A stretch of DNA of 64,000 nucleotides, from contig NZ_BMZB01000001.1 of the NCBI RefSeq assembly GCF_014652575.1, forward strand, positions 744,001 to 808,000. The letters are read 5' to 3'. Positions 26,912-29,575 of this stretch are shown piece after piece. The translations under genes and the position numbers were made by a program. The DNA comes from Asticcacaulis endophyticus (GTDB taxonomy: Bacteria; Pseudomonadota; Alphaproteobacteria; Caulobacterales; Caulobacteraceae). The notes beneath the pieces are model-generated. The model was not told where the DNA came from, searched no databases, and was given only the letters and a program-made list of their open reading frames with translations. Numbering within the stretch: position 1 is the first letter of the stretch; each line of letters opens with the position of its first letter.

Positions 26912-27870
26912 GCACCGTAACCGACGATTTTATCGAACTGAGCGAAGACGGGGTTCTGGCCCTGACCGGCCCGAATGAGCGCTATCTGGCGCTGATCGAA
27001 GCGGCCTATAATGTACTGGTCGAAACACCGGGCGGGGGCTTAAGCGTCACCGGCGATGTGGCGGGCCGTCAGAAGGCCAAGGCGATATTTGGGGCCCTCA
27101 AAAAACGCTTTGATAAGGGCCTTGATATCTCTGAAGCCGATGTGCGGTTACTGATCCAGAATCCGTTGGGTAAGACCCCGGCTTGGGCCGATCATCACTC
27201 AAACTCTCATGTCGTCGTCATGGGCCGCAAGGGCGCGGTCGTGCCTAAGACCGAGGGGCAAGCCGGTTACTTTCAGCAGCTTCTGACCAAATCACTGGTG
27301 TTTGGCCTTGGTCCTGCCGGATCGGGTAAGACCTTTCTGGCGGTGGCGCACGGCACGCAGCTTTTGATGAAGGGCGCGGTTGATCGGCTGGTGATCGCGC
27401 GTCCCGCCGTTGAAGCCGGTGAAAAACTGGGGTTTCTGCCCGGTGACCTGAATGAAAAGGTCGATCCCTACATGATGCCGATCTGGCAGGCGCTGGACGA
27501 TATTCTGGGGGCGGACGGTTTGCGAAAGCGGCGTGAACGCAATGAGATTGAGGTGGCGCCTCTGGCCTATATGCGCGGTCGGACGTTGTCGAACGCCTAT
27601 GTGATTATCGATGAGGCGCAAAATACCACGAAGCAGCAAATGAAGATGGTGCTGACCCGTCTGGGCGAAGGCTCAAAAATGGTGGTGACCGGCGATCCGT
27701 CGCAGGTCGATCTGCCCAATGCGCGCGAGTCAGGTTTGGCCCACGCGGTCAGTCTGCTGGGGCGGCTGGAGGGTGTGGGCGTGTCACGCCTGACCGCCGA
27801 TGACGTGGTGCGTCATGAACTGGTGGCGCGGATCGTGCGCGCCTATGATAACGAATTTAAGGAATCCTGA
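26908..27870 (+). CDS. phoH: PhoH-family ATPase (YbeZ)
   Basis: 320-aa PhoH-like P-loop protein: Walker [12 protein letters not shown], Walker B VIIDEAQN and the [10 protein letters not shown] sensor. It is linked to YbeY in RNA and 16S maturation in other bacteria. The start is TTG at 26908, overlapping the miaB TGA; AAGGA at 26897-26901 with 6-nt spacing makes this start convincing. It is joined to ybeY by a 1-nt overlap. No in-frame ATG precedes the conserved region. Confidence 0.9.
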
Positions 27871-28355
27871 TGGAAAGTCCGGTTTTGGTAGACATTGAGG
27901 TTGAGCATGAAGACTGGCTCGACGTGCTGCCGGAGGCCCCGCACCTGATCCAAACGGCGATTGAGGCGACCTTTGCCCATCTGGAAACCAGCCAGCAGGC
28001 CGACATAGTCGTGCTGCTGACCGACGATGCCGAGATGAAAGATCTCAACAAGCAGTACCGCCAGAAGAACGCGCCGACCAATGTGCTGTCATTTCCGGCG
28101 CCTAAGATTGCGGGTGTTACCGACATCGCCCATCTGGGGGACATGGCGCTGGGGCTTGAGACCTGCGTGCGTGAGGCCAAGGAGCAGAATAAGACTCTGG
28201 CCAACCATGTCACACATCTCAGTATACACGGCGCGCTGCATCTATTAGGCTATGATCATATGGTTGAGACTGAGGCTCAAGAGATGGAAGACCTTGAGCG
28301 CGACGTCCTCAAAAGCCTGAATATTGCCGATCCCTATTTGACAGATGAGACCTGA
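27870..28355 (+). CDS. ybeY: Endoribonuclease YbeY
   Basis: 161-aa zinc-dependent endoribonuclease for 16S rRNA 3' maturation and ribosome quality control. The metal site is H120, H124 and H130 in HLSIHGALHLLGYDH, preceded by NVLSFP and LGDMALG. The ATG shares its A with the phoH TGA. Only 5 bp after its stop begins the 305-bp inverted-repeat element, which interrupts the usual continuation into corC. Confidence 0.93.
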   Translation: MESPVLVDIEVEHEDWLDVLPEAPHLIQTAIEATFAHLETSQQADIVVLLTDDAEMKDLNKQYRQKNAPTNVLSFPAPKIAGVTDIAHLGDMALGLETCVREAKEQNKTLANHVTHLSIHGALHLLGYDHMVETEAQEMEDLERDVLKSLNIADPYLTDET

Positions 28356-28360
28356 TATCC

Positions 28361-28665
28361 TTAGGCCGTAAACTCATAAATTTCATAATATTGGTGTGAG
28401 GCCGTTTGTGCGGATACCAGGAGAAAAATTGCTGGAAATGCTTACATTTTCAAAATTTTACGACACCGTAGTCCGTGCAAACGGTCCGCATCCCATTAGG
28501 TTTTGTGAAAACAAAACCGTGTTTTCACGGGCGGACGACGAAATGGCGTCATACTGCGTCGGAAATAGACTTGAACAGGGGATGGCCCTGATCTGTGTCT
28601 ATTTCCTAGCATTATTTAGCCCTTTCAGTCGCCAATATCATGAAATTTATGAGTTTACGGCCTAA
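28361..28665. mobile_element. 305-bp MITE-like element with 26-bp terminal inverted repeats
   Basis: Terminal arms 28361-28386 and 28640-28665 are perfect 26-bp inverted repeats, extending to 36 bp with two non-Watson-Crick pairs (28361-28396 with 28630-28665). Internal perfect stems: GGAAATAGAC 28561-28570 with 28597-28606, itself enclosing CAGGG/CCCTG; GGTTTTGT 28499-28506 with 28511-28518 on a GAAA loop; and the mutually exclusive GTGAAAAC 28505-28512 with 28521-28528. A GTCCGC/GCGGAC pair (28484-28489, 28531-28536) brackets these. There is no transposase. TA dinucleotides lie just inside both ends, which would fit an IS630/Tc1-type non-autonomous element (inference). A single 89-codon frame crosses it and is probably incidental. 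Confidence 0.7.
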
Positions 28666-28669
28666 CATC

Positions 28670-29575
28670 ATGCCCAGCTCCGACGACCCGGCGAGTCCAT
28701 CGCCACAGACATCCTCAAAAAAATCCATCCTGTCCCTGTTTGGGTGGGGCAAACCCGCCGCTGAGGACGCCGACGCGGACCCCCTCAGTCCGGCTAAGGA
28801 TGTCGCCGCCGACCTCATCAATCATGCCCGTGAATTTCAGACCCTGCGTGTCGCGGATGTCATGACGCCACGCGCCGATATTGTGGCGGCTGATGTGTCT
28901 TGTACTCTGGCGGACGTGGTCAGGATCTGCATTGAGAGCGAACATTCGCGCCTGCCGATCTTTCGTGAAACTCTGGATGATCCGATCGGGGTTCTGCACA
29001 TCAAGGACCTGCTTAAGGTGTTGTCGCCGGAGAATGTCGATGGCTCCGGGCCGAACTGGGCCGAGCCGATCCTGCACCGCCTGCGCCGCGATGTGCTCTA
29101 TGTGCCGGTGTCAATGAAGGCCCACGAACTGCTGCTGCGAATGCAGGCCGAGCGTACCCACATGGCCATGGTCATCGATGAATTTGGCGGCACAGACGGT
29201 CTGGTGACGATGGAAGACCTGATCGAAGCCGTGGTCGGTGACATTGACGATGAATATGATGATGACGCCGCCCTTGATATTATCGAACATGGCGCGGGCG
29301 TGATTGAGGCCGATGGCCGGGTCGAGCTTAAAACCCTTGAGGAACGGCTGAACCTTACGCTTTATCCTGAAGATACCGAAGAAGAGGTCGATACTCTGGG
29401 CGGGCTGGTCGCCGTTCTGGCGGGGCGGGTGCCGCGCCGAGGCGAGGTCGTGCGCCATAAATCTGCGGGCTTTGATATCGAAGTCATGGATGCCGATACC
29501 CGCCGCATCAAGCGCCTGCGTCTGCATCCGCTTACTGAGGCGCAATTGTCCGAAGACACCGACAAAGACGAATAA
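28670..29575 (+). CDS. CorC/HlyC-family CBS-domain protein
   Basis: 301 aa from the ATG at 28670. Two earlier in-frame ATGs (28640, 28649) lie inside the right arm of the inverted-repeat element, and none has a clear ribosome site, so the start is uncertain. It has tandem CBS domains (about 60-180: VADVMTPRADI, EHSRLPIF, HMAMVIDEFGGTDGLVTMEDL) and a C-terminal CorC_HlyC transporter-associated domain (about 210-285). The role is inferred in magnesium/cobalt efflux or membrane-stress resistance. It keeps its usual place between ybeY and lnt. The element may have displaced the native leader of this gene. Confidence 0.85.
   Translation: MPSSDDPASPSPQTSSKKSILSLFGWGKPAAEDADADPLSPAKDVAADLINHAREFQTLRVADVMTPRADIVAADVSCTLADVVRICIESEHSRLPIFRETLDDPIGVLHIKDLLKVLSPENVDGSGPNWAEPILHRLRRDVLYVPVSMKAHELLLRMQAERTHMAMVIDEFGGTDGLVTMEDLIEAVVGDIDDEYDDDAALDIIEHGAGVIEADGRVELKTLEERLNLTLYPEDTEEEVDTLGGLVAVLAGRVPRRGEVVRHKSAGFDIEVMDADTRRIKRLRLHPLTEAQLSEDTDKDE

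What the first reader, a model, noticed from the sequence alone, without database searches (positions are those of the whole stretch)
28361..28665. 305-bp structured element with 26-bp perfect terminal inverted repeats inside the ybeY-corC junction
The ends are exact 26-bp inverted repeats, extending imperfectly to 36 bp, and the interior holds nested and mutually exclusive perfect stems (28499-28528, 28561-28606). It interrupts a normally tight operon and supplies possible start codons for the CorC gene. It could be a MITE, a domesticated regulatory RNA, or both. The alternative hairpins look switch-like.
Basis: partly seen in the sequence, partly recalled or inferred. Interest (0 to 1): 0.7.

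Follow-up and report, generated by a model that had tools for sequence, protein, structure and literature searches.

The report
Structured mobile element between two genes
A 0.3-kb piece of non-coding mobile DNA has inserted between two genes of an Asticcacaulis bacterium; it belongs to a scattered family of small transposable elements whose letters change while their folded double-hairpin shape is kept, which is unusual for such elements.

Summary
[quoted passage not shown] The genome holds 4 copies; the same junction is unoccupied, with a single TA, in A. machinosus, and a second site is unoccupied in 4 of 4 relatives. Its ~17-bp ends match those of IS5-family (IS427-like) insertion sequences in congeners. 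A search with that transposase found nothing in the window genome, so its copies look stranded.

The unexpected part is the interior. Eleven copies share a three-way fold; 40 of 102 pairs changed on both sides (16.4 in shuffles). A covariance model finds diverged full-length copies in other Asticcacaulis genomes and a second genus; BLAST adds Rhizobium, Terrarubrum and Roseibium plasmids. Fold and length (~265 bp) persist while the ends differ. Both arms look like one hairpin module (AGGAG...CGACG), inverted. Two wobble-pair tests show no strand bias (15:15; 25:28), favouring DNA hairpins; a third count, fitted to one strand, leans to RNA (90:23). The "alternative hairpins" lie in a 36-bp insert present in 3 of 11 copies and absent from one orthologue, so a conserved switch is unlikely. 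In 10 of 17 sites the end re-creates a TAG stop for an upstream reading frame (5 verified genes). What the core does is inferred.

The parts
28362..28363 (.). left TA target-site duplication
   Evidence: unoccupied site CCCTTAACATC in G007 and A. machinosus L109 against CCTTA[element]TAACATC here
28364..28662 (+). the element proper (GGCC...GGCC), 299 bp
   Evidence: multi-copy; covariance model hit 28363-28663, 289 bits (the copy is itself in the model's alignment)
28663..28664 (.). right TA target-site duplication
28363..28394 (+). left terminal inverted repeat / basal stem; the outer ~17 nt match ends of IS5-family elements in the genus
28632..28663 (-). right terminal inverted repeat / basal stem; also carries in-frame ATGs 28640 and 28649 for CorC
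28395..28490 (+). left hairpin arm: module AGGAG (28419-28423) ... CGACA (28461-28465)
28536..28631 (-). right hairpin arm: the same module on the minus strand, AGGAA (28607-28603) ... CGACG (28561-28557), weaker fit
28496..28531 (+). 36-bp insert in the central hairpin holding the mutually exclusive stems; present in 3 of 11 copies
27870..28355 (+). ybeY (endoribonuclease YbeY), upstream neighbour
   Evidence: Pfam PF02130
28670..29575 (+). corC-like gene (CBS + CorC_HlyC), downstream neighbour; the ATG at 28670 corresponds to the one in unoccupied relatives

Best explanation
It is a non-autonomous DNA transposon (MITE) inserted at a TA in the ybeY-corC junction. SHOWN: multiple copies, unoccupied orthologous sites, TA duplication, ends shared with IS5-family (IS427-like) insertion sequences, and a fold kept by paired changes across copies whose ends differ. 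INFERRED: a transposase of that type acts on the ~17-bp ends in trans. The conserved interior, two inverted copies of one hairpin module with AGGAG/CGACG internal loops, works as DNA: it extrudes as hairpins when single-stranded or as a cruciform, and is kept because it helps the element itself (excision, replication or protein binding), much as REP hairpins serve REPINs. Its effect on corC is most likely incidental: it separates two neighbouring genes while leaving both reading frames intact.
For: 4 copies in the own genome; 11 copies in 6 of 25 genus genomes by DNA search. Unoccupied ybeY-corC site with one TA in G007 and A. machinosus L109; site C1:875457 unoccupied with one TA in 4 of 4 relatives. 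Ends: ~850-bp TA-flanked elements with GGCCGTAGACTCATAA ends (L205) and GGGTCCGGACCCAATA ends (L206) carry a homologous transposase; a relative in G004 whose right end was not found encodes DUF4096 and part of DDE_Tnp_1. Fold: 96.8% of cells paired, 40 of 102 pairs changed on both sides vs 16.4 shuffled (0 of 500), slid controls 5-10; column shuffles z -27.6. Diverged full-length copies found by model and by BLAST, confirmed by model. Strand tests: GU 15 vs AC 15 in the 96 pairs common to both strands; transcribed strand GU 25 vs AC 28. Both arms carry the module at a similar distance from their own end.
Against: No transposition was observed, and no match to that transposase was found in the own genome. 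Of the other own-genome sites, 139455 lacks a TA pair, 1508259 has TA on both sides but its counterpart in G020 has extra letters, and 875457 reads TA/TC. G020 lacks the window insertion but its junction is altered. Against the DNA reading: in the 18-row alignment fitted to the plus-strand structure GU outnumber AC 90 to 23, and six pairs predicted on the plus strand only hold 32 GU, among them a tandem wobble kept in 10 of 11 copies. Paired changes in DNA palindromes can arise by template switching without selection. A review passage calls stable stem-loops a usual feature of MITE transcripts (PMC10969869). Right arms of most window-type copies fit the module less well; G019's right arm was not found. 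Matching IS ends were found for two end classes only.
Confidence: 0.7

Rival explanations
1. The core is a structured RNA spread by transposition: in either orientation the transcript's 5' arm presents the AGGAG/CGACG hairpin, which acts in the mRNA (processing, stability, insulation of operon partners).
For: Copies sit between co-directional genes (ybeY-corC; soxB-soxD in Terrarubrum; a transporter permease and the next gene in Rhizobium); the dyad symmetry gives the same 5' arm in both orientations; very stable RNA fold; GU 90 vs AC 23 in the plus-fitted 18-row alignment and a conserved tandem wobble.
Against: No wobble bias on the transcribed strand (GU 25 vs AC 28) and folding energy favours the transcribed strand in only 8 of 16 oriented sites (I assigned orientation by hand); no Rfam match in the window stretch; no promoter-like site.
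Confidence: 0.25
2. A passive MITE: the palindrome has no function and its pairing is maintained by template-switch correction between hairpin arms during replication.
For: Mostly Watson-Crick pairing with equal GU and AC in two counts, as a DNA correction mechanism would give.
Against: The unpaired loop letters AGGAG and CGACG recur across differing ends and across orders, and most full copies without the insert stay near 265 bp, which pairing correction does not explain.
Confidence: 0.2
3. A domesticated riboswitch-like regulator of corC with mutually exclusive hairpins.
For: Two overlapping perfect stems at 28499-28530 with terminator-like tails.
Against: They lie in a 36-bp insert absent from the G017 orthologue and from 8 of 11 copies; other copies adjoin other genes.
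Confidence: 0.03

Closest known systems
IS5 family, IS427 group, and MITEs derived from it
   Same: ~850-bp relatives in the genus have matching ends and TA flanks, a relative has DUF4096/DDE_Tnp_1; a Paracoccus survey lists IS427-group elements of 832-865 bp, mostly with 2-bp repeats, and reports two overlapping ORFs in this group (PMC3281130, passages)
   Different: Interior beyond the ends showed no resemblance to the IS interior on inspection, and is conserved across several end types
MITEAba12 as a typical bacterial MITE (PMC6382973, passages)
   Same: Short, ends shared with a resident IS, target duplications
   Different: There the ends are the most conserved part, the centre varies and predicted folding is weak; here it is the reverse
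REPINs (PMC3116915, passages)
   Same: Two inverted units forming one mobile hairpin; compensatory changes reported as common in the hairpin
   Different: Longer (~265 bp; the GI REPIN has 71 bp between its two 16-mers), IS5-type ends at TA; no RAYT link tested
Caulobacter CIR element (named in PMC10969869, passages)
   Same: Intergenic repeat in the same bacterial family (Caulobacteraceae; recalled)
   Different: No GANTC site in any of 11 copies (that CcrM sites are GANTC is recalled); the CIR sequence itself was not compared

Membership tests
MITE | short, no coding capacity, terminal inverted repeats | tested here: met
   299 bp, 26-nt exact repeats; no Pfam hit for the 89-aa ORF. A stop-free frame of 85-97 codons runs through 8 of 11 copies but is shifted or on the other strand in 3
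MITE | multiple copies and unoccupied orthologous sites | tested here: met
MITE | target-site duplication | tested here: met
   TA on both sides with a single TA in relatives at the window site; TA/TC with a single TA in 4 of 4 relatives at 875457; TA on both sides at 1508259 with a messy counterpart; none at 139455
MITE | observed transposition | not testable with these tools
   sequence data only
IS5/IS427-mobilised element | ends shared with an IS5-family element | tested here: met
   for two end classes; such an IS was found in congeners, not in the own genome
IS5/IS427-mobilised element | movement by that transposase in trans | not testable with these tools
   needs a bench assay
REPIN | inverted doublet of hairpin units | tested here: met
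REPIN | association with a RAYT (Y1) transposase | not tested
   no genome search was left
Riboswitch / known structured RNA | match to a curated RNA family | tested here: not met
   no Rfam match up to E 1 in window 28000-29000; two hits below gathering score in four relatives' loci, one of them overlapping an element
Riboswitch / known structured RNA | strand-specific pairing (GU tolerated on the transcribed strand) | tested here: inconclusive
   15:15 and 25:28 say no; 90:23 in an alignment fitted to the plus strand says yes
CIR element | CcrM (GANTC) sites | tested here: not met
   0 of 11 copies

The most novel reading that the evidence does not exclude
A widespread alphaproteobacterial class of mobile element whose heritable part is a DNA fold: a conserved double-hairpin core, recognised as a structure by an unidentified protein, that changes its ends to exploit different IS5-type transposases and often settles in stop codons, where its first base rebuilds a TAG so that neither neighbouring protein is harmed.
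Probability: 0.3. Interest if true: 0.75.

Novelty: new variant of a known kind. Interest (0 to 1): 0.5.

Why it matters
Bacterial MITEs are usually seen as decayed leftovers with conserved ends and variable insides. Here the inside is conserved as a shape across bacterial orders while the ends differ. That makes testable whether a small parasite carries a selected DNA structure, which protein reads it, and how insertions in dense operons avoid harm.

Tried and rejected
Riboswitch / known RNA: no Rfam match in the window stretch, none above gathering score in four relatives, and the switch-like part is not conserved. Coding element: 8 of 11 copies have a stop-free frame of 85-97 codons, but it is frame-shifted in G000_875 and the longest frame is on the other strand in G019 and G013c; no Pfam hit. 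CIR-like element: no GANTC in 11 copies. Plasmid BLAST with the window copy and with the G052 copy: nothing. Phage BLAST with L258: nothing. Viral contigs: one pattern 0 hits, a second 28 contigs, none of which holds the element by the model, so probably chance matches. A 36-nt end match on Rhizobium pHM1 holds no element by the model. Origin of the 36-bp insert: a 20-nt pattern in 25 genus genomes gave 3 exact matches, all in the known copies, and 6 with 1-3 mismatches, against 6 for the reversed pattern. Excision footprints at G020 and G017: suggestive letters only, left open. Stop-codon preference as a property of this element alone: 3 of 11 IS copies show it too; Fisher p 0.14 for 10 of 17, 0.43 for 8 of 17.

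The draft also left out the 90:23 wobble count; I added it and lowered the main confidence from 0.75 to 0.7 and raised the RNA rival from 0.2 to 0.25.

Full report
OBSERVATION. The inverted repeats, nested stems and position between ybeY and corC are as reported. The interval folds much better than dinucleotide shuffles on either strand with RNA parameters, and on the plus strand with DNA parameters. The element itself is 28364-28662, with TA on both sides.

MOBILITY. The own genome (G000, 3.95 Mb, 13 contigs) has 4 copies, all on contig C1. In the genus, 7 of 25 genomes have a DNA match: 6 have element copies (11 in all) and one, G014, matches only through the end repeat. An exact 19-mer of the end occurs in 9 of 299 family genomes, all in this genus. 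Record titles of the closest CorC relatives place the genus as Asticcacaulis (L108 is UBA2476, L109 is A. machinosus). G013 and G017 share the ybeY-corC insertion; G007 and G020, also close by YbeY, lack it. The other 20 genus genomes have diverged YbeY (57-72% identity) and I compared their junctions only by eye for those printed in reading direction. G007 and A. machinosus L109 show the same unoccupied junction letters with one TA. The G020 junction is also unoccupied but altered; flank distances do not place G020 clearly inside or outside the carriers. At 875457 the 4 of 4 relatives have one TA where G000 reads TA/TC; 139455 has no TA pair and 1508259 has TA on both sides but extra letters in its G020 counterpart.

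SOURCE OF MOVEMENT. The outer ~17 nt are shared with IS5-family elements in congeners: repeats mostly at contig ends in G014, an element in G004 with DUF4096 and part of DDE_Tnp_1, whose right end was not found, and TA-flanked ~850-bp elements in G024 and G005. A protein search with that transposase matched 16 of 25 genus genomes, many only as distant relatives (32-45% identity), but not G000. IS427-group size, two ORFs and 2-bp repeats agree with PMC3281130 (passages).

CONSERVED FOLD. Aligned copies (A1, 11 sequences, pairwise 67-99% identical) share a three-way structure: basal stem, two arms, short central hairpin. 96.8% of cells pair; 40 of 102 pairs show changes on both sides (shuffles 16.4 +/- 2.3, 0 of 500; slid versions 5-10). 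Shuffling alignment columns, which does not keep dinucleotides, gives z -27.6. These copies are related, so counts are not independent events. The model R1 then found matches in 10 of 299 family genomes: 9 of the 25 in the genus and one (G052) in another genus (stricter filters that can lose weak matches). Eighteen places are full-model matches, one of them (G012b, 212 bp) lacking the left arm; one more (G021) is a 66-nt fragment. Eleven of the 18 are the copies the model was built from. On these 18 rows 85 of 102 pairs have both-side changes; that alignment was fitted to the structure and orientation was chosen by score, so this figure leans towards the structure. BLAST with a diverged copy (L258) found Rhizobium sp. 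SSA_523 and Terrarubrum flagellatum plasmids, and with the Rhizobium copy a Roseibium aggregatum plasmid; the model confirms them (120, 133 and 77 bits).

TWO INVERTED MODULES, DIFFERING ENDS. In 21 elements examined, with one mismatch per motif allowed and the start restricted to positions 36-90, the motif pair AGGAG...CGACG was found in 20 left arms on the plus strand (not in G012b, which lacks that arm) and in 20 right arms on the minus strand (not in G019). One chance hit in such a search would not be rare; the evidence is the constant place: in all but Roseibium, whose ends were set loosely, AGGAG starts at position 56-58 from its own end. In G000_875 the right-arm pair chosen by the script is out of register, and most window-type right arms have AGGAA and a poor inner stem by this scoring. 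AGGAG against CGACG would give tandem G.A pairs (inference). Ends differ by class: GGCCGTAAACTCATAAA, GGGTCCAAACCC, GGGCCTGTTGACAG, TGACCTGAATCTCCC; an IS with similar ends was found for the first two only.

DNA OR RNA. If one RNA strand were the selected molecule, G-U should be tolerated and A-C not. In the 96 pairs predicted on both strands the counts are 15 and 15; six pairs predicted on the plus strand alone hold 32 GU and five on the minus strand alone hold 16 AC. Orienting 16 sites by hand from neighbouring genes, the transcribed strand has 25 GU and 28 AC; folding energy favours it in 8 of 16. Against this, the 18-row alignment fitted to the plus strand has 90 GU and 23 AC, and a tandem wobble is kept in 10 of 11 copies. 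I read the first two as the fairer tests, since the third was fitted to the plus strand; RNA is not excluded. None of this separates selection from template-switch repair; against the latter stand the recurring loop letters.

THE SWITCH IDEA. The exclusive stems at 28499-28530 lie in a 36-bp insert found in the window copy, its G013 orthologue and one other G013 copy (3 of 11). G017 lacks it at the same locus, and G000 lacks it at the orthologue of the second G013 copy. A conserved switch at corC is therefore unlikely. The two terminator-like sites found are within this insert.

INSERTION SITES. Of 18 distinct sites, 17 were scored; Roseibium was viewed apart and has no listed gene within about 300 bp, in an incomplete gene table. 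In 10 of 17 an upstream reading frame of at least 100 codons stops at TAG made of the duplicated TA plus the element's first G; in 8 of 17 it is also the longest frame entering the site (G023 and G019 drop out). Five are verified genes: DapD-like, ScpB, S41 peptidase, ABC permease (Pfam) and soxB (annotation); the other five have no Pfam hit. For soxB (4 homologues fetched of 1241 records matched) and the permease (1 fetched of 2382), homologues end at the same residue, so the element sits in the stop codon of an intact gene; in Rhizobium the AGGAG ahead of the next gene is also intact. Background from the window: non-coding or gene-edge TA sites give the pattern in 10.1% (any frame) or 8.8% (longest frame), p 1e-6 and 4e-5; all TA sites in 24.7% and 23.2%, p 0.003 and 0.03; counting only verified genes, 5 of 18, p 0.02-0.03 against non-coding sites and 0.4-0.5 against all. 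Gene calls were crude and from one genome. IS copies show it in 3 of 11, not significantly different. The window copy does not follow it: 8 nt lie between the ybeY stop and the element.

EFFECT ON CORC. The ATG at 28670 is kept; the right repeat adds MKFMSLRPNI in frame upstream. No promoter-like site was found. Expression is untested.

LITERATURE. Ten searches showed, in the listings I saw, no description of this element; the library lacks most subscription journals and ISfinder was not searched. Papers were read as passages only (PMC10969869, PMC3281130, PMC3116915, PMC6382973, PMC5082802); others were seen in listings.

VERDICT. An ordinary kind of object (a MITE) with an unusual property: the interior fold, not the ends, is what persists.

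Noticed in passing
window 28496-28531; L043 (G013 C72) against L014 (G000 C1:1508259): The 36-bp central insert is shared by two loci in G013 and one in G000 but absent from close orthologues, suggesting transfer between copies or independent loss.
   Followed up: partly
L057 (G020, ybeY-corC junction): Unoccupied site with altered letters (TGATATCTCTCATG), possibly an imprecise excision or a different ancestral junction.
   Followed up: partly
L236 (G017) and L235 (G013), counterpart of G000 C1:139455: The junction carries extra letters, TTTAGGCCTG in G017, which resemble element ends and could be an excision footprint.
   Followed up: no
L261 (G000 C1:875457), L255 (G012), L254 (G023) and window 28640-28669: At four sites an end repeat supplies in-frame ATGs to the neighbouring reading frame (MKFMSLRPN-type leader).
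   Followed up: partly
L191/L206 (G005 C4): Two IS5-family elements of different end classes lie back to back.
   Followed up: no
L263 (G012 C1:551234-551445): A 212-bp copy that has lost the left arm; the right arm and ends remain paired.
   Followed up: no
NZ_CP129381.1 (Rhizobium sp. SSA_523 pHM3): The record has 5 places matching the Rhizobium copy or its end; only one was fetched.
   Followed up: no
element copies of A1, position 86 (window 28448-28460): An IHF-consensus-like site with one mismatch occurs in 8 of 11 copies, none exact.
   Followed up: no
L189 (G003 C2): Runs of N adjoin the IS5-family element in this genome record, so its ends could not be fully judged.
   Followed up: no
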